From: Deltaproteobacteria bacterium
Lineage (GTDB): Bacteria; Campylobacterota_A; Desulfurellia; JAGGSF01
Assembly (NCBI GenBank): GCA_021159235.1
Contig: JAGGSF010000024.1
Location: 1 to 5,574 of the forward strand
Direction: 5' to 3'
Length of the DNA: 5,574 nt
Part shown: positions 1-5,574 of the stretch, one piece after another
How positions within the stretch are numbered: the first letter of the stretch is position 1
How the letters are laid out: the number at the start of each line of letters is the position of its first letter
The notes under the pieces: model-generated
What the model was told of the DNA's origin: nothing
Database searches by the model: none
The model's input: only the letters and a program-made list of their open reading frames with translations
Made by a program: the position numbers and the translations under genes

Positions 1-620
1 ACGGTATTCCTCTGTTTCTGTCTTCTACTGTTACAAGAATTTTTGGTGAAGGGAGGATTGAGGGTGTTAATGTAGGAAAAGTGGATAAAGATCTAAAAAT
101 TATCCCGGGTACAGAAAGATTCGTGAAATGCGATACACTACTTTTATCCGTAGGACTGATCCCTGAAAATGAGCTTTCTAAGAAAGCAGGGATAAAAATA
201 AATGAGCTTACGGGAGGGGCGGTGGTAGACTCTCACCTTCAGACCAGTGTAGAGGGAATTTTTTCCTGTGGAAATGTTTTGCACATTCACGACCTTGCAG
301 ATCATGCCAGCCTGGAAGGGGAAAAAGCGGGATACTTTGCAGCGAAATATATAGAATCCAAAGGGGAAAGATACGGCAGATACAGGGTAAGCTTCTGTGA
401 TAAGATCAGATATGCCCTGCCAAACTGTATTGTAGAAGATGGGGAACCGGTGAGCATCTCGTTTCGCATCAAAAGACCTACCAGAAACACGGTTTTAACT
501 GTGAAAGACAGAGAAGATATATTAATAAAGAGAAAATTTGTAAGACTTTTGCCTTCAGAACTTGTTCAGATTAAATTGGAAAAAGAGATTAAGTCCGATA
601 TATATCTGGAAATAGAATGA
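1..620 (+). CDS. NAD(P)/FAD-dependent oxidoreductase, 3' part (5' end outside window)
   Basis: The frame is open from the first base (first whole codon at base 3) to TGA at 618-620, giving 205 visible C-terminal residues; the start lies upstream. The visible part opens with GIPLFLSSTVTRI, continues through a conserved CDTLLLSVGLIPENELS stretch, and carries the C-terminal FAD-contact motif TSVEGIFSCGNVLH typical of pyridine-nucleotide-disulfide-type flavoproteins. It ends in a beta-rich tail of about 75 residues rich in Lys, Arg and Glu. The GTG at base 81 is internal, since the homologous sequence continues upstream of it. In known genomes this family sits between a glycerol-3-phosphate-dehydrogenase-like gene and a DUF1667 gene, and here it overlaps DUF1667 by ATGA. 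The two probably form an electron-transfer complex; the substrate cannot be read from this fragment. The N-terminal FAD and NAD motifs are not visible. Confidence 0.9.
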   Translation, partial: GIPLFLSSTVTRIFGEGRIEGVNVGKVDKDLKIIPGTERFVKCDTLLLSVGLIPENELSKKAGIKINELTGGAVVDSHLQTSVEGIFSCGNVLHIHDLADHASLEGEKAGYFAAKYIESKGERYGRYRVSFCDKIRYALPNCIVEDGEPVSISFRIKRPTRNTVLTVKDREDILIKRKFVRLLPSELVQIKLEKEIKSDIYLEIE

Positions 621-985
621 GAAGGAAGATCTCCTGTATTTTATGTCCCATGGGATGCGAACTGGAGGTTGAAGTACAAAAGGGTAAGGTAATTTTAGTT
701 GAAGGTAACCTTTGTGAAAGAGGTATTAAGTATGCAAAAGAGGAGGTAGAAAATCCTACCCGCTGTATTTCCACCTCTATTCCCATTCAGGAAGGCGGAA
801 AATGTGAAACAGTTTCTGTAAAGACGAGTAATCCCATACCAAAGGATAAGATATTTGATGTAATGAATGAAATTAAAAAGGTTGAGTTAAAAGCACCGAT
901 AAAATCGGGGGATATCATTATAAAAAATGTTTTGAACTTAAATGTAGATATTGTAGCGACAAGAAGTGTAGAAAGGGAAATTTAA
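617..985 (+). CDS. DUF1667 family cysteine-rich protein, partner of the upstream flavoprotein
   Basis: 122 residues. The ATG at 617 overlaps the upstream TGA (ATGA), so translation is probably coupled. The N-terminus has a CILCPMGC cluster (Cys7, Cys10, Cys14), followed by GNLCERGIKYAKEE (Cys33) and a further Cys50 in NPTRCIST. This layout resembles the small iron-sulfur domain at the N-terminus of molybdopterin oxidoreductases and is diagnostic of DUF1667. The second half (about 75-122) is a beta-rich, cysteine-free domain ending in IVATRSVER. By family knowledge the protein accompanies the flavoprotein and a glycerol-3-phosphate-dehydrogenase-like subunit, and probably carries a metal or Fe-S centre for electron transfer; that role is inferred. 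No signal peptide or membrane helix is seen, so it is cytoplasmic. It appears to be the last gene of its operon, since the next genes run on the other strand. Confidence 0.9.
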   Translation: MRRKISCILCPMGCELEVEVQKGKVILVEGNLCERGIKYAKEEVENPTRCISTSIPIQEGGKCETVSVKTSNPIPKDKIFDVMNEIKKVELKAPIKSGDIIIKNVLNLNVDIVATRSVEREI

Positions 986-989
986 ATTA

Positions 990-1026
990 GAGAAAAGCTT
1001 TTTATCTATCTTTCTCCTCCTTTTTT
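990..1026 (+). terminator. Possible weak terminator between converging genes
   Basis: GAGAAA (990-995) can pair with TTTCTC (1011-1016), followed by a pyrimidine stretch ending in six T (1021-1026). The stem is short (6 bp), the loop is long (15 nt) and the T run starts 4 bases after the stem, so this is a weak intrinsic terminator at best. Its position, just past the DUF1667 stop and overlapping the end of the converging minus-strand gene, is where one is expected. Confidence 0.25.
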
Positions 1027-1278
1027 ATTGTCTTATATACATAACCCCAAAGAAAGAGGAAAAGCCCCAGAACAAATCCTCCGAATAATGTCGGTAAAAG
1101 ATGCGGTAAGCTTTCCAAACAGCGGAGATGCCGTTCAAGGGAACAAGTTACGGTTTGGTAAAAGATTCTGTAGGCTTTCTCTTCCTGAGAGAAGCTTGGG
1201 AAGAAAAATTGTCAATGTCACCAGTATTACCACAAACGCAATGATTCTTATCAGTAGTGCCTTAAACCCTTCTTTCAT
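1002..1278 (-). pseudogene. Small two-helix membrane protein, probably frameshifted by a 64-bp duplication
   Basis: Read on the minus strand from ATG at 1278, which overlaps the upstream TGA as ATGA. The first frame gives a hydrophobic helix (residues about 7-27, with IIAFVVILVTLTIF), then LPKLLSGRESLQNLLP, and stops at TGA 1137-1135 after 47 codons. A second frame, shifted by +1, then encodes ESLPHLLPTLFGGFVLG, a second membrane helix and a charged tail ending KKEEKDR, with stop at 1004-1002. The segments encoding ESLQNLLP (1179-1157) and ESLPHLLP (1115-1093) are 20/23 identical and exactly 64 bases apart (64 = 3x21+1). Removing 64 bases restores one 70-residue protein with two membrane helices. 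A sequencing error or a truly short 47-residue product are alternatives. I do not recognise the family. The coupled start supports a real ancestral gene. Confidence 0.5.
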
Positions 1279-1493
1279 TTTCCCATACCTGTCATAAACC
1301 ATTTATCTTTTAACTCGTCATAGAGAATGTTGAGTCTACCTTCTTCGATATAAACGGTGAAGTGTAATGCATTAGGTGTGCGCCACATTTTTTCTATTCT
1401 TTGTATATCATACTTCTTTCCTTTTCTAATAAGAGCTACAGGCTTTTCTCCATATCGTGAGCCACTGTAACATTCTACTGTTATTTCTTCCAT
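1275..1493 (-). CDS. Small conserved protein, DUF6504-like (72 aa)
   Basis: The sequence starts MEEITVECYSGSRYGEKPVAL, then has a basic KGKKYDIQRIEKMW segment, ALHFTVYIEEGRLNILYDE and a final DKWFM. The pattern (ECYSG.R..E.P, a Trp around residue 37, then a beta-hairpin ending with D..W) matches from memory the small all-beta DUF6504 type; the function is unknown. No membrane segment or signal peptide is seen. The ATG at 1493 is chosen because GGAG lies just upstream (1500-1497, a short 3-nt spacing) and the family begins here. A TTG at 1529 would extend the protein into the hairpin repeat and is unlikely. The stop overlaps the next ATG, so the two minus-strand genes form one unit, divergent from nnr. 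Confidence 0.6.
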   Translation of the reverse strand: MEEITVECYSGSRYGEKPVALIRKGKKYDIQRIEKMWRTPNALHFTVYIEEGRLNILYDELKDKWFMTGMGK

Positions 1494-1500
1494 ATTCTCC

Positions 1501-1529
1501 AATATAGTTAAAGATATTTGTTTTGACAA
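1501..1529 (-). promoter_or_regulatory. Possible minus-strand promoter at the repeat edge
   Basis: TTGTCA (1529-1524) and TATATT (1506-1501) are separated by exactly 17 bases, each 5/6 to the sigma-70 consensus. The predicted start of transcription falls at about 1495, almost on the ATG at 1493, which would make the message nearly leaderless and leave the GGAG outside it. That conflict keeps confidence low. The -35-like box is the outer edge of the first hairpin repeat. Confidence 0.25.
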
Positions 1530-1624
1530 CTGCTATAAGCAGTTGCAAGCAAACACTTCTGGTGTTTGTCTTGACAACTCTCGTAGAGAGTTGCAAGCAA
1601 ACAACTTTGTTGTTTGTCTTGACA
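1523..1624. repeat. Tandem 48-bp double-hairpin repeat: two units plus the edge of a third
   Basis: Unit 1 is 1523-1570, unit 2 is 1571-1618, and a third copy survives only as TTGACA (1619-1624). Each unit holds two abutting hairpins. Unit 1: CAACTGCT/AGCAGTTG (1527-1545, ATA loop), then 1546-1573, an 11-bp stem with one bulged T. Unit 2: CAACTCTC/GAGAGTTG (1575-1593, GTA loop), then 1594-1621, a 12-bp stem with the same bulge. The units are 37/48 identical, and every difference lies in the hairpin tips. Four base pairs change between units and all are compensated (G-C to C-G, C-G to T-A, T-A to C-G, C-G to A-T), so structure rather than sequence is kept. The 48-bp period is also 16 codons, so frames run open through it, but no gene is inferred. 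It lies in the divergent intergenic region. Confidence 0.9.
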
Positions 1625-1646
1625 GATTTACATATTGGTGGATAAT
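1619..1646 (+). promoter_or_regulatory. Sigma-70-type promoter of the nnr operon
   Basis: TTGACA (1619-1624, 6/6 consensus) is followed after 16 bases by GATAAT (1641-1646, 5/6). Transcription would start near 1653, leaving a leader of about 30 bases with an AAGGGGG ribosome-binding site at 1672-1678, five bases before the ATG at 1683. The -35 box is the conserved edge of the hairpin repeat. The same TTGACA in the other two units has no -10 box at the right distance. Confidence 0.7.
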
Positions 1647-1682
1647 TTGCAGTGTGAAGATTGCATAATTTAAGGGGGTAAG

Positions 1683-3248
1683 ATGAAGGTATCCACAGTA
1701 GAGGAGATGCGAAACTTGGATAGACGTTCAATGGAAGAATGCGGTTTCCCGCAGGAGATGTTGATGGAAAATGCAGGTGAGGCTGCATACTTCGTTATAC
1801 TAAAAGATTTTGGTGTAAAAAATAAGAGATTTGTTATCTTTTGCGGTATAGGCAACAATGGTGGAGATGGTCTTGTTGTCGCCAGAAAGATTCATTCTAA
1901 CGGTGGAGATGTAAAGATATATCTTCTGGGTGATGAGAGAAAATTCACAGGTGCAGCAAGAATGAATTTTGAGATTGCGTCTAAGATACCCCTGAATATT
2001 GAACATGTTGAATCCCTTGAAGCTGTAAAATTGGATATTTTACATTCGGATGCCGTAGTAGATGCAATATTTGGCACAGGTCTGAAAAGAAATGTGGAGG
2101 GCATATATAAAGATGTTATTCAATTGATAAACGAAAGCGGGAAGAAGGTGTTCAGCATAGATATACCATCCGGCATAAACGGCAACACGGGAAAGATAAT
2201 GGGTGTCGCTGTAAAATCAGATTATACTATAACCTATGGTCTTCCCAAATTAGGAAATATGTTATATCCGGGATATGACAGGTGTGGAAAATTGTATGTT
2301 TCGCACATATCTTTTCCTCCCTCCCTCTATGATTCAATAAAAGTGGAAACAAATGACCCCATAAAACTACCGGAAAGAGTTAAGGATGCACATAAGGGAG
2401 ATTTTGGAGAAGCTTTGTTTATTGCAGGTGCGTCCAGCTATTTTGGAGCTCCATATTTTTCTGCGCTATCTTTTTTAAAGGCAGGAGGAGGATACTCAAG
2501 GTTAGCTGCACCTCTATCCGTTACGCCATTTATAGCTAACAAGGGTAGCGAGATAGTATTTATACCGCAGAAGGAAACCTCTTCAGGGAGTATATCTTTG
2601 GAAAATAGAGATAGCTTGTTAGAGCTCTCGGAGAAAGTGGATATGGTTATATTAGGTCCTGGATTGTCGTTAAATGAAGAAACACAGAGGTTGGTAAGGG
2701 AATTGGCAGAGGAGATTGAAAAACCGCTTATAATAGATGGGGATGGAATTACAGCAGTTTCTAAGGATGTAGAAATAATAAAGAAGAGAAAGAAAGAGAC
2801 AATCCTTACTCCTCATCTGGGTGAAATGTCTCGGATTACTAAATTGAGCGTAAAAGAGATAGATGAAAACAAGGTAGAGGTATTACGGAAAACATGCGGG
2901 GAGTTGAATGCCATTATTGTTTTGAAAGGAGCTCATTCCTTGATAGGATATCCCGATGGGAGGGTTTTTATAAATATGAGTGGAAACTGTGGTATGGCTA
3001 CCGCAGGTTCTGGTGATGTTCTAACTGGGACAATTGCCGCTATGTTTGGTTTGGGGTTGAATATTTTTGATGCGGTGAGAATGGGTGTTTTCATGCATGG
3101 ATTTTCTGGGGATCTGGCGGCTATGGATAAGGGAGAAGATGGGATAACAGCACAGGATATATTACACTATCTTCCCAATGCTATGAAATATTATAGAGAG
3201 AGTTTTGATGAGGTTTTTAAAGAGAACTACGAACTTCAGGTTATATAG
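1683..3248 (+). CDS. nnr: Bifunctional NAD(P)HX epimerase / ADP-dependent NAD(P)HX dehydratase
   Basis: 521 residues, the usual length of the fused YjeF-type enzyme. It repairs hydrated, inactive NADH and NADPH in the cytoplasm: the N-terminal half interconverts R and S forms, and the C-terminal half dehydrates the S form using ADP (ATP in eukaryotes). Epimerase domain, about 1-215: MENAG (28-32), GIGNNGGDG (55-63), VDAIFGTGL (126-134, Asp127), SIDIPSGING (158-167, Asp160). Dehydratase domain, about 225-505, ribokinase-like: HKGDFG (237-242), then LGPGLS, DGDG, LTPHLGEM, VLKGAHS, and GSGD at 442-445 with the probable catalytic Asp445, then GEDGITAQDIL. Both halves look intact. The ATG at 1683 has an SD at good spacing and begins the conserved N-terminus. 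A dehydrogenase that uses the same cofactors follows 9 bases after the stop, in the same operon. Confidence 0.96.
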   Translation: MKVSTVEEMRNLDRRSMEECGFPQEMLMENAGEAAYFVILKDFGVKNKRFVIFCGIGNNGGDGLVVARKIHSNGGDVKIYLLGDERKFTGAARMNFEIASKIPLNIEHVESLEAVKLDILHSDAVVDAIFGTGLKRNVEGIYKDVIQLINESGKKVFSIDIPSGINGNTGKIMGVAVKSDYTITYGLPKLGNMLYPGYDRCGKLYVSHISFPPSLYDSIKVETNDPIKLPERVKDAHKGDFGEALFIAGASSYFGAPYFSALSFLKAGGGYSRLAAPLSVTPFIANKGSEIVFIPQKETSSGSISLENRDSLLELSEKVDMVILGPGLSLNEETQRLVRELAEEIEKPLIIDGDGITAVSKDVEIIKKRKKETILTPHLGEMSRITKLSVKEIDENKVEVLRKTCGELNAIIVLKGAHSLIGYPDGRVFINMSGNCGMATAGSGDVLTGTIAAMFGLGLNIFDAVRMGVFMHGFSGDLAAMDKGEDGITAQDILHYLPNAMKYYRESFDEVFKENYELQVI

Positions 3249-3260
3249 GGGGAGGTGATG
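3248..3260 (+). promoter_or_regulatory. Unusually extended Shine-Dalgarno running into the start codon
   Basis: GGGGGAGGTGATG: nine bases from 3251 (GGAGGTGAT) are perfectly complementary to the 16S tail and run into the ATG at 3258, leaving only two bases between GGAGG and ATG. A GTG at 3255 lies inside the same block. The ATG is preferred because the family begins M(R/K)AWVL. The G run also overlaps the nnr stop codon, so reinitiation by ribosomes finishing nnr is likely. Confidence 0.6.
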
Positions 3261-4265
3261 AGAGCCTGGGTATTAAAAAAACAATCAAAAATAGAGGAAA
3301 GACCATTAAAGCTTGTGGAGGTGGAAACCCCTTATCCCAAGGATGATGAAATAAGGGTGAAGGTTTTAGTCTGCGGTGTGTGCAGGACAGATATTCACAT
3401 TGCAGAAGGAGACCTCCCCTTGAAAAAGGACAATTTGATACTTGGTCATGAAATTGTAGGGATTGTGGATAAAACGGGGAAGGGTGTAAAAAGGTTTAAG
3501 GTTGGGGATAAGGTGGGTGTTTCGTGGTTGAATAGCACTTGTGGAAAATGCAAGTTTTGTCTATCCGGTAGAGAAAATTATTGTCCAAATTTCAAATGCA
3601 CCGGATGGGATGTAGATGGTGGATATGCAGAATATACAATTATAAAAGAAGATTTTGCCTTGAATTTAAATGATATTAAATTGGAGGCGGAGGATGTTGC
3701 GCCTCTTATGTGCCCGGGAATAGCGGGATATTGTGCATTTAAACTGACTGATATAGAGAAAGGGGAAAAACTGGGATTATATGGTTTTGGTCCTACTGCA
3801 TACTATGTGTTAAAGGTTGCAAATCGCCTGGGTATCGATACCTATGTGAGCACCAGATCTCAAAAAAACATAGAGGCAGCAAAAAAGGCAGGGGCAATCT
3901 GGGCAGCGGATGCATCAAAGAAAGACCTACCCTGTAAACTGGACAGATCCATTGTATTTCCACCTGCAGGAAATCTGGTGGAACCTGCATTAAAGAAACT
4001 TGAGGTAGGTGGAATATTGGTGTTGGCACCGGTAAGTATGTCAACCATTGAAATAAAAAATTATTCACAGAACTTATGGGGGAGAGACATAAGAACGCTG
4101 TTCAATGTAAAGAAATCATGGGGGGAAGAGTTTTTAAATATTGCAGATGAAATGCAGATAAAGATGGGAAAAGAGGTTTTCCCGTTTGAGAAATTACAGG
4201 ATGCACTGATTTTGGTCAGGAAAGGAGAAATAAAAGAGCCAAATGCAGTAATAAAAATTAGTTAA
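3258..4265 (+). CDS. Zinc-dependent alcohol dehydrogenase (MDR family)
   Basis: 335 residues from ATG 3258, the usual length for medium-chain zinc alcohol dehydrogenases. It should oxidise alcohols or reduce aldehydes with NAD(P)(H) in the cytoplasm. GroES-like domain: catalytic zinc ligands Cys42 (CGVCRTD), His64-Glu65 (GHE) and Cys152 (APLMCPGIAGY). Structural zinc site: Cys95, Cys98, Cys101 and Cys109 (CGKCKFC...NYC). Rossmann domain: GLYGFGPTA (172-180), ending in STRS (197-200); Arg199, where NAD enzymes usually carry an acidic residue, hints at NADP(H). The C-terminal half has LWGRDIRTLFN, as in the AdhA-like branch with aldehyde or alcohol substrates. The true substrate cannot be told. 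All zinc ligands are present, so the enzyme looks active. It is cotranscribed with nnr. The IS110 element begins only 21 bases beyond its stop. Confidence 0.93.
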   Translation: MRAWVLKKQSKIEERPLKLVEVETPYPKDDEIRVKVLVCGVCRTDIHIAEGDLPLKKDNLILGHEIVGIVDKTGKGVKRFKVGDKVGVSWLNSTCGKCKFCLSGRENYCPNFKCTGWDVDGGYAEYTIIKEDFALNLNDIKLEAEDVAPLMCPGIAGYCAFKLTDIEKGEKLGLYGFGPTAYYVLKVANRLGIDTYVSTRSQKNIEAAKKAGAIWAADASKKDLPCKLDRSIVFPPAGNLVEPALKKLEVGGILVLAPVSMSTIEIKNYSQNLWGRDIRTLFNVKKSWGEEFLNIADEMQIKMGKEVFPFEKLQDALILVRKGEIKEPNAVIKIS

Positions 4266-4280
4266 TCTCTGTTAATCTCT
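4261..4280. repeat. Perfect 10-bp direct repeat at the end of the dehydrogenase gene
   Basis: GTTAATCTCT occurs twice head to tail. The first copy contains the dehydrogenase stop codon (TAA 4263-4265). It abuts the GGGGTC that flanks the insertion sequence. It may be the outer edge of the REP-like sequence that the element entered, or simple slippage. Confidence 0.8.
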
Positions 4281-4295
4281 GGGGTCAGATACTGT
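4281..4295 (-). other. IS110 right end, core and right target flank
   Basis: On the minus strand ACAGTAT (4295-4289) is the right end of the element, CT (4288-4287) is the core and GACCCC (4286-4281) is flanking DNA. ACAGTATC matches the left donor guide 8/8, and CTGACCC is the exact complement of the right target guide. Confidence 0.8.
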
Positions 4296-4343
4296 GGTCA
4301 AAGTCAAGTCCCAAAACTCTCCCCTATTAACTTCTTTTTTAAG

Positions 4344-5300
4344 TTAAGCAATTGAGAACTCTACCTTATTTTTATAAACTGCGTGTGCTATTAACACCAA
4401 TTTTCTCATAGCTGCTATAAGGGCTACTTTCTTAGACTTATGATTATTTATAAGCCTTTCATAAACTGTTTTTATTCTCTTGTTATAGTTTATGGCAGTC
4501 AGTGTAGGAAAATATAATATCTTACGTACAGTTCCGTTTCCATTCTTACTAATTTTTCTCCTACCACTAATGGAGGTCCCTGATTCCTTTCTTGTTGGAT
4601 CTAAGCCTACCAATGCTGTTATCTGGGAGCGATTTGTATCTTTATAATTTTTAAATAAATACAATAGGGCAATTGCGCTTATTTTACCAATACCTGGAAT
4701 TGTCAGAAGATTATGATAATCCTCTTTTAATTCCTTATTTTTTTCTATATGTTTCTCAGTTTTATTTAAAAGTCTCCCCTCAAGTTGTTTGTTTCTTTTA
4801 AACTCTTGTTTTAAGGTGCTCAAGAGTTTCTTAGGTGCATCATTATGCTCTAAAGCCTCAATATGATTTGAGATGGAAATTCTTGTCTTAAGTACAAATT
4901 CATAGCTTGAAAGGTACGCAGATAATACTTCAACATCCTTATCTATTTCAGGGACCTTTATATCACCTGGATTAATAAGGTTTTTAAATGCATAAAGTGT
5001 TTTAGCATCAATTTTATCTGTCTTCGAGCGATTGCCAATTGCCTTTGCAAAATTGGAACTCCTTTTAGGGTTAATGATACAGGTCTTTATCTGGTTAGTG
5101 GCACAGAACTTCTTTAGATAATTAGAATATGGGCCTGTAGACTCAAAGATGATTACTACATCATCAAATGTTTCAAACTTCTCTTTAAGGTATGATTTTA
5201 AAGCCCTCAGACCCCTTTCATTTTTAAATGTTAAATCTTTTTTACCATCAAACACAGAAAGTACTTCCTTTGAAACATCAATTGCGATATAATACTTCAT
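4344..5300 (-). CDS. IS110-family DEDD transposase (bridge RNA-guided recombinase)
   Basis: 318 residues, slightly short but typical for IS110. The enzyme joins donor and target DNA under the guidance of the bridge RNA encoded just upstream. N-terminal RuvC-like domain (DEDD_Tnp_IS110): Asp8 (YIAIDVSK), Glu53 (FESTG), Asp95 and Asp98 (KTDKIDA), so all four acidic residues are present. A helical, lysine-rich linker with coiled-coil character spans about 120-195. C-terminal Transposase_20 domain: LLTIPGIGKISA (198-209), ALVGLDP, and ESGTSISG with Ser240 as the probable nucleophile, then RRKISKNGNGTVRKILY. The ATG at 5300 has AGGAGG six bases upstream (5312-5307). The frame stays open to an ATG at 5531, but that extension is the bridge RNA and is not protein-like. 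The stop lies within a hairpin, 4327-4347. Translation is probably restrained by the hairpin over the SD. Confidence 0.95.
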   Translation of the reverse strand: MKYYIAIDVSKEVLSVFDGKKDLTFKNERGLRALKSYLKEKFETFDDVVIIFESTGPYSNYLKKFCATNQIKTCIINPKRSSNFAKAIGNRSKTDKIDAKTLYAFKNLINPGDIKVPEIDKDVEVLSAYLSSYEFVLKTRISISNHIEALEHNDAPKKLLSTLKQEFKRNKQLEGRLLNKTEKHIEKNKELKEDYHNLLTIPGIGKISAIALLYLFKNYKDTNRSQITALVGLDPTRKESGTSISGRRKISKNGNGTVRKILYFPTLTAINYNKRIKTVYERLINNHKSKKVALIAAMRKLVLIAHAVYKNKVEFSIA

Positions 5301-5307
5301 AAGAAAC

Positions 5308-5329
5308 CTCCTAATAATTTTATTAGGAG
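5308..5329 (-). promoter_or_regulatory. Hairpin sequestering the transposase Shine-Dalgarno
   Basis: In the transcript CTCCTAATA (5329-5321) pairs perfectly with TATTAGGAG (5316-5308) around a 4-nt loop. The right arm contains five of the six bases of the AGGAGG site (5312-5307). A ribosome could bind only when this stem is open, so transposase synthesis should be held down, in particular from transcripts reading in from outside. The effect is inferred; the pairing is seen directly. Confidence 0.75.
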
Positions 5330-5356
5330 AGTTTGTGATGGGCAGGCCCTTCCCAT

Positions 5357-5551
5357 AGCTTGACCTCGTAACAACGCAAGCTGAAGTGGCTCTTGCCATT
5401 TCGCTTCTGATACTGTTCAAGCTTGTGGAGGGGCGGTCCATCTGACCCACGAACTGATTACCAATCGATAATCGTTCCGGTCTCATTTGACCTAGCCAAC
5501 CACTAAACTCTTCGGAAGCAAAATATAGCATTATTTAATCTCCACTTCTAT
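5357..5551 (-). ncRNA. IS110 bridge RNA with target-binding and donor-binding loops
   Basis: The 5' end is estimated from the promoter formed at the circle junction; the 3' end is set at the end of the donor-loop stem. Target loop: outer stem GGC..GGTC (5497-5489) with GACC.GCC (5438-5432); left guide TGAGACC (5485-5479); inner 9-bp stem 5477-5469 with 5460-5451, one bulge, 8-nt loop; right guide GGGTCAG (5448-5442). Donor loop: outer 7-bp stem 5423-5417 with 5363-5357; left guide ACAGTATC (5416-5409); inner stem 5406-5395 with 5390-5378, loop AAGA, one mismatch and one bulge; right guide TACGAG (5370-5365). The order and geometry are those of the IS621 bridge RNA, and all four guides fit this element's ends and flanks. 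A clear 5' stem-loop ahead of the target loop was not found. About 195 nt, close to the 177 nt of IS621. Confidence 0.85.
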
Positions 5552-5557
5552 GTTCTT

Positions 5558-5574
5558 ATAGTACGAGGTCTTGA
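5558..5574 (-). other. IS110 left end, core and left target flank
   Basis: On the minus strand TCAAGAC (5574-5568) is flanking DNA, CT (5567-5566) is the core and CGTACTAT begins the element. CTCGTA is the exact complement of the right donor guide TACGAG. AGACC of the flank plus core matches the left target guide, with two wobble pairs beyond. TACTAT (5563-5558) can act as the -10 box when the ends join. Confidence 0.75.

What the first reader, a model, noticed from the sequence alone, without database searches (positions are those of the whole stretch)
5357..5551. A bridge RNA whose four guides can be read against the element's own ends and flanks
Seen in the sequence: two internal loops fold upstream of the transposase. 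Left donor guide ACAGTATC = right end 4295-4288 (8/8). Right donor guide TACGAG is the complement of left end CTCGTA 5567-5562 (6/6). Right target guide GGGTCAG is the complement of CTGACCC 4288-4282 (7/7). Left target guide TGAGACC fits CAAGACC 5573-5567 with five Watson-Crick and two wobble pairs. Known: IS110 recombinases use such bispecific RNAs. Inferred: this element carries a working programme that matches its present site, so it inserted there itself and has not diverged since.
Basis: partly seen in the sequence, partly recalled or inferred. Interest (0 to 1): 0.88.

Follow-up and report, generated by a model that had tools for sequence, protein, structure and literature searches.

The report
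IS110 element with intact bridge RNA
This is a 1.3-kb IS110-family jumping gene, a distant cousin of E. coli IS621, whose upstream RNA carries four short guides matching its own ends and the repeat it sits in; the mechanism is already known, so it is a well-formed new member rather than a new kind.

Summary
All four guide matches are at the stated coordinates. Every sequence feature I tested for IS110-group bridge-RNA elements is present except a clear 5' stem-loop. The element (minus strand, 5567 to 4287, CT core, 1279 bp counting one core) encodes a 318-aa DEDD/Ser recombinase homologous to IS621.

New evidence:
- The leader is 95.9% identical to an 82%-protein sibling, against 86.8% for the gene.
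- The right end and CTGACCC recur at two other loci with different flanks.
- The target TTCAAGACCTGACCCC occurs intact in the same genome. It is a palindromic, REP-like repeat in 9 of 99 genomes, and flanks a Y1 transposase gene in one.
- Across seven related elements the target guides fit their own flanks better than any reassignment (1 of 5040 permutations).
- The circle junction would create a promoter with a 17-nt spacer in 8 of 8 elements.
- Both handshake dinucleotides pair 4 of 4.

Weak points:
- The left target guide alone is not beyond chance (32% of shuffles).
- The left flank is only 8 nt (contig end).
- A covariance model from independent relatives ranks the site first in the window, but at E = 0.14.

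Nothing shows present activity. New member of a known kind.

The parts
4344..5300 (-). IS110-group recombinase, 318 aa, DEDD (D8, E53, D95, D98) and Tnp-domain serine (ESG, S240)
   Evidence: Pfam PF01548 and PF02371; phmmer to IS621 8wt6, E 9e-26, full length; residue positions
5566..5567 (-). left core dinucleotide CT
   Evidence: ends compared with IS621 and relatives
5567..5574 (-). left target flank TCAAGACC (ends at the contig end; last C is the core C)
   Evidence: identical to the left half of the intact repeat at C71 2217-2232
5558..5563 (-). -10 hexamer TACTAT in the left end; pairs with the -35 in the right end only in the circular form (17-nt spacer)
5357..5551 (-). bridge RNA (start 5551 predicted by analogy with IS621, 7 nt after the -10); 3' end uncertain
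   Evidence: 95.9% leader identity to the L033 sibling
5425..5503 (-). target-binding loop: outer stem GTGG..GG..GGTC / GACC..CC..CCAC, inner hairpin GAACGATTATC/GGTAATCAGTTC (5477-5451)
   Evidence: fold z -3.42; pairs checked on window and L033
5479..5485 (-). left target guide TGAGACC
   Evidence: 5 WC + 2 wobble to 5573-5567; not significant alone, supported by swap test
5442..5448 (-). right target guide GGGTCAG
   Evidence: 7/7 to CTGACCC 4288-4282
5440..5441 (-). handshake guide AT after RTG, pairs donor P7-P6 (T, A)
5357..5423 (-). donor-binding loop: outer stem AGCTTGA/TCAAGCT (7 bp) at the place predicted from relatives, inner hairpin GAAG..TGGC/GCCA..CTTC
   Evidence: fold z -2.69; both L033 changes in the outer stem are wobble-compatible; same register as the covarying stem of 16 relatives
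5409..5416 (-). left donor guide ACAGTATC
   Evidence: 8/8 to 4295-4288; same sequence in the IS621 bridge RNA
5365..5370 (-). right donor guide (T)ACGAG
   Evidence: 6/6 to 5567-5562; first T varies in the sibling
5363..5364 (-). handshake guide GT after RDG, pairs target P7-P6 (C, A)
5308..5329 (-). hairpin CTCCTAAT/ATTAGGAG that encloses the Shine-Dalgarno sequence of the recombinase
   Evidence: nearly unchanged in L033
4302..4307 (-). -35 hexamer TTGACT in the right end
4289..4295 (-). left donor sequence ACAGTAT (end of the right end)
4287..4288 (-). right core dinucleotide CT
4281..4286 (-). right target flank GACCCC
   Evidence: same bases follow the right end in L033 and in C71, with different sequence beyond

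Best explanation
A complete IS110-group (IS621-like) insertion sequence, inserted in reverse orientation into a TTCAAGACC|TGACCCC palindromic repeat just downstream of an alcohol-dehydrogenase-like gene. Inferred cycle, by homology to IS621: the recombinase excises a circle joined at the CT core. The joined ends create a promoter (TTGACT-17-TACTAT) that transcribes the leader as a bridge RNA. Its second loop (LDG/RDG) holds the circle's own ACAGTAT-CT-CGTA junction, and its first loop (LTG/RTG) holds a CAAGAC-CT-GACCC target. The recombinase tetramer exchanges strands at CT, helped by handshake dinucleotides after each right guide. Shown here: the protein family, the ends, the guides, the loops, the target repeat and their covariation across relatives. 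Inferred: transcription, binding and recombination.
For: Recombinase domains and full-length similarity to IS621, catalytic residues kept. Joint guide matches absent from 100,000 shuffles. Leader conserved above the gene, 260/271 against 831/957, p 6e-6. Two of the three changes to L033 within the listed stems keep the pair by wobble. Right end plus CTGACCC repeated at C71 and L033 with different flanks. Intact target in the same genome. Guides match their own flanks across 7 elements, best of 5040 permutations. Split promoter with 17-nt spacer in 8 of 8 circles. Handshake pairing 4 of 4. Donor-loop stems of relatives covary, 0 of 500 shuffles.
Against: An independent covariance model of whole bridge RNAs does not find the window. 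A donor-loop model ranks the site first but at E 0.14. No stable 5' stem-loop (z +0.96), which IS621 has. The LTG match is not significant alone. The left flank is only 8 nt. Rfam has no matching family.
Confidence: 0.93

Rival explanations
1. The element is a real IS110 member but an inactive fossil: the guides record a past insertion and the copy no longer moves.
For: Only one full copy plus one right-end relic in this genome; LTG carries two wobbles and a core mismatch.
Against: Intact reading frame and catalytic residues; leader more conserved than the gene; ends, promoter halves and handshake bases intact.
Confidence: 0.25
2. The guide matches are coincidence and the leader is only an untranslated or translated leader of the transposase (a 395-codon frame starting at 5531 is open through it).
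For: The frame is open in the window; single guides of 6-7 nt are common.
Against: All four together never occur in 100,000 shuffles; the sibling has an indel in the leader and a shorter open frame; guides covary with flanks across relatives.
Confidence: 0.02
3. The element belongs to the IS1111 group, with the guide RNA downstream.
For: Same protein superfamily.
Against: The long non-coding end is upstream (267 nt) and the right end is about 55 nt; donor guides are found upstream; no long subterminal inverted repeats were seen.
Confidence: 0.01

Closest known systems
IS621 of Escherichia coli (IS110 group; Durrant et al. 2024 PMC11208160; Hiraizumi et al. 2024 PMC11208158)
   Same: Recombinase architecture, CT core, identical left donor ACAGTAT and LDG ACAGTATC, two-loop bridge RNA upstream of the gene, split circle promoter with 17-nt spacer, handshake bases AT and GT, insertion into a REP-type repeat.
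   Different: Roughly 30% protein identity; right donor CGTAC instead of TGTAT; 7-nt RTG pairing instead of 4; longer donor-loop hairpin; no clear 5' stem-loop; a different target repeat.
IS110-type elements of REP sequences: ISPa11, ISPpu9, ISPpu10, ISRm19 (PMC1525189)
   Same: IS110-family elements that insert at a fixed place in palindromic repeats.
   Different: Different hosts and repeat sequences; guides not compared here.
seekRNA elements of IS1111 and IS110 (PMC11187229)
   Same: Same principle of an element-encoded RNA choosing the target.
   Different: That paper covers both groups; the IS1111 members have subterminal inverted repeats and carry the RNA in the right end (the latter per PMC11208160).

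Membership tests
IS110 family, IS110 group (IS621-like) | DEDD RuvC-like domain plus Tnp domain with catalytic serine | tested here: met
   Pfam and PDB sequence matches, residues D8 E53 D95 D98 and S240
IS110 family, IS110 group (IS621-like) | long non-coding end upstream of the gene, short right end | tested here: met
   267 nt upstream, about 55 nt downstream
IS110 family, IS110 group (IS621-like) | core dinucleotide shared by target and donor | tested here: met
   CT at both ends, as in IS621 and most relatives examined
IS110 family, IS110 group (IS621-like) | bridge RNA with target loop and donor loop whose guides match the flanks and the ends | tested here: met
IS110 family, IS110 group (IS621-like) | promoter recreated at the circle junction | tested here: met
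   sequence only, TTGACT-17-TACTAT, same offset in 8 of 8 elements
IS110 family, IS110 group (IS621-like) | handshake guides | tested here: met
   4 of 4 Watson-Crick
IS110 family, IS110 group (IS621-like) | 5' stem-loop in the bridge RNA (described for IS621 orthologues; not treated as required for the diverse IS110s in PMC11208160) | tested here: not met
   first 60 nt of the left end fold no better than shuffles, z +0.96
IS110 family, IS110 group (IS621-like) | match to a covariance model of independent bridge RNAs | tested here: inconclusive
   whole-RNA model: no hit; donor-loop model: best place in the window is the LDG, E 0.14
IS110 family, IS110 group (IS621-like) | RNA expression, binding by the recombinase, RNA-guided recombination | not testable with these tools
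   needs experiment
IS1111 group | guide RNA in the right end and long subterminal inverted repeats | tested here: not met
   right end about 55 nt, donor guide found upstream
REP-like repeat as the target | short palindromic repeat, dispersed or in inverted pairs, linked to a Y1 transposase gene | tested here: met
   16-mer in 9 of 99 genomes, inverted pairs, 15 copies in one genome; one pair flanks a Y1_Tnp gene. Only one such gene was checked

The most novel reading that the evidence does not exclude
The element's guides are set to the core of a repeat shared by unrelated genomes and linked at least once to a Y1 (IS200-like) transposase, so one unchanged bridge RNA programme would be usable in unrelated hosts. 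A right-end relic with 89% protein identity in a Nitrospirae genome would fit such spread, though that relic has a different right flank.
Probability: 0.3. Interest if true: 0.45.

Novelty: new member of a known kind. Interest (0 to 1): 0.3.

Why it matters
It shows that the full IS621 design (four guides, handshake bases, split promoter) is kept in a distant element from a reduced, uncultured relative of the Desulfurellaceae, with a longer right target guide and a different, widespread target repeat. It is a usable additional orthologue for bridge-RNA work, and a further clear case of IS110 guides set to a REP-like repeat. It does not change the known mechanism.

Tried and rejected
- Rfam scan: nothing relevant.
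- Close relatives in viral contigs: none by protein. DNA patterns from the RNA and right end gave only short matches without an IS110 gene.
- More siblings: 395 genomes of the phylum of the Nitrospirae hit and 386 relatives gave no new copy above the thresholds.
- Dating the insertion or testing LTG against the sibling's flank: not possible, because the L033 contig starts 4 nt left of the core.
- L034 relic as a guide-tracking test: its bridge RNA is missing.
- Whole-RNA covariance model from enterobacterial relatives: finds Bandiella (E 1e-8) but not the window.

Full report
What the window is. The window occupies contig C61, bases 1-5574, of a 1.13-Mb, 122-contig genome. Its same-class relatives include an uncultured Desulfurellaceae bacterium. 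The element lies on the minus strand at the window's right end, just downstream of an alcohol-dehydrogenase-like gene (3255-4265).

Checking the four guides. Searching 100,000 dinucleotide shuffles of the 267-nt leader for the same four matches gave LDG in 0.32%, RTG in 1.8%, RDG in 4.4% and LTG in 32%. At least three occurred in 32 shuffles and all four in none. So the LTG alone is weak and the set is strong. In IS621 itself the LTG also has a G opposite a T in the target (ATCGGGCC against ATCAGGCC), which Hiraizumi et al. saw as a non-canonical pair (PMC11208158), so wobbles there have precedent.

Ends. By comparison with IS621 the junctions read TCAAGAC-CT-CGTACTATAAG on the left and ACAGTAT-CT-GACCCC on the right. 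The sibling L033 (82% protein identity) has the same left end starting AGAC-CT-CGTAC and the same right end followed by GACCCC and then different sequence. A 42-bp right-end relic on C71 of the same genome is again followed by CTGACCCC and then different sequence. The right boundary is therefore supported by three loci. The left boundary rests on the repeat, because both contigs end there. A further relic in a Nitrospirae genome ends ACAGTAT-CT-CGTTTG, with another right flank; its RNA is lost.

Target. Joining the two flanks gives TCAAGACCTGACCCC. CAAGACCTGACCCC exists intact at C71 2219-2232, within TTCAAGACCTGACCCC at 2217-2232. That 16-mer occurs in 9 of 99 genomes, often as close inverted pairs, with 15 copies in one genome and no matches for the reversed control. 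One pair in that genome flanks an ORF with the Y1_Tnp domain. REP-associated tyrosine transposases are the known genes of that kind (PMC2817692). IS110 elements that insert in REPs are known (IS621, ISPa11, ISPpu9/10, ISRm19; PMC1525189).

RNA structure. The target-loop segment folds with z -3.42 and the donor-loop segment with z -2.69. The whole-RNA minimum-energy fold differs (z -3.65). Between the window and L033 the leader is 260/271 identical, the gene 831/957 (p 6e-6). Two changes in the donor-loop outer stem keep pairing through wobble, and one in the target-loop inner hairpin breaks a pair. In 16 relatives the two donor-loop stems covary (84.8% of cells paired, 0 of 500 shuffles, and lost on sliding by one column). 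The window's 7-bp stem AGCTTGA/TCAAGCT lies in that register, by hand alignment. Covariance models were less kind: the whole-RNA model misses the window, and the donor-loop model ranks the LDG site first but at E 0.14. I attribute this to the longer donor hairpin; it remains inconclusive.

Do guides follow flanks? For seven elements (the window, IS621, an Enterobacter copy, the 39% relative in genome G016, Bandiella, Acinetobacter, Salmonella houtenae), each target loop scores its own target above the other six, and the matched assignment is the best of 5040 permutations. The ends of the relatives were set using LDG and left-end motifs, not the target guides, so the test is not circular with respect to targets. 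IS621 and the Enterobacter copy are closely related (81% over the RNA), so the seven are not fully independent.

First, in 8 of 8 elements the right end holds a -35 that falls exactly 17 nt from a -10 in the left end when the circle closes (TTGACT-17-TACTAT here). The integrated left end has no promoter passing the scan. Second, the handshake dinucleotides after RTG (AT) and RDG (GT) pair 4 of 4 with donor and target positions 7 and 6. The position-7 pairs hold in all eight elements, with one GU, including a compensated change in the Salmonella copy.

How it most likely works. By homology to IS621 (PMC11208160, PMC11208158): excision as a circle, transcription of the bridge RNA from the junction promoter, capture of the donor junction by the second loop and of the repeat by the first, and strand exchange at CT. 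The anatomy of each step is shown here; the steps themselves are inferred.

Verdict. A complete IS110-group element with a bridge RNA, by every sequence feature tested except the 5' stem-loop and an inconclusive covariance-model search. Present activity is unproven. New member of a known kind; interest modest.

Noticed in passing
L066 (G000:C71) 966-1110 and 2178-2290: A right-end relic of the same element, cut off on its left next to a truncated transposase-like ORF (404-943, minus), followed by two copies of a duplicated stretch with the CAAGACCTGACCCC / CAGGACCTGACCCC repeat, close to what looks like the start of a 16S rRNA gene.
   Followed up: partly
L034 2101-2300: Nitrospirae genome with a 5'-truncated copy (last 38 codons, 89% identical, plus the right end) whose right flank CTCGTTTG differs from the usual CTGACCCC and resembles the element's own left end CTCGTA.
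   Followed up: no
window 5308-5329: Hairpin CTCCTAAT/ATTAGGAG that would hide the recombinase's Shine-Dalgarno sequence; also scored as a terminator-like site.
   Followed up: no
window 5574 and L033 1: Both independent contigs end within 8 nt of the left junction, as expected if the assembler met alternative left neighbours (several copies, or circles).
   Followed up: no
window 1517-1625: Tandem palindromic units (TTGACAACT..AGTTGCAAGCAAACA..TGTTTGTC) repeated just upstream of the NAD(P)H-hydrate repair gene at 1683.
   Followed up: no
L109 926-1842 (G045:C22): Y1 transposase gene (Y1_Tnp) bounded by inverted TTCAAGACCTGACCCC repeats in a genome with 15 copies of the repeat.
   Followed up: partly
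L112 (G016:C79) 480-1760, minus: A 39%-identical IS110 element in the same class with its own bridge RNA and a different target (CTTGCAC-CT-ACGAGG).
   Followed up: partly
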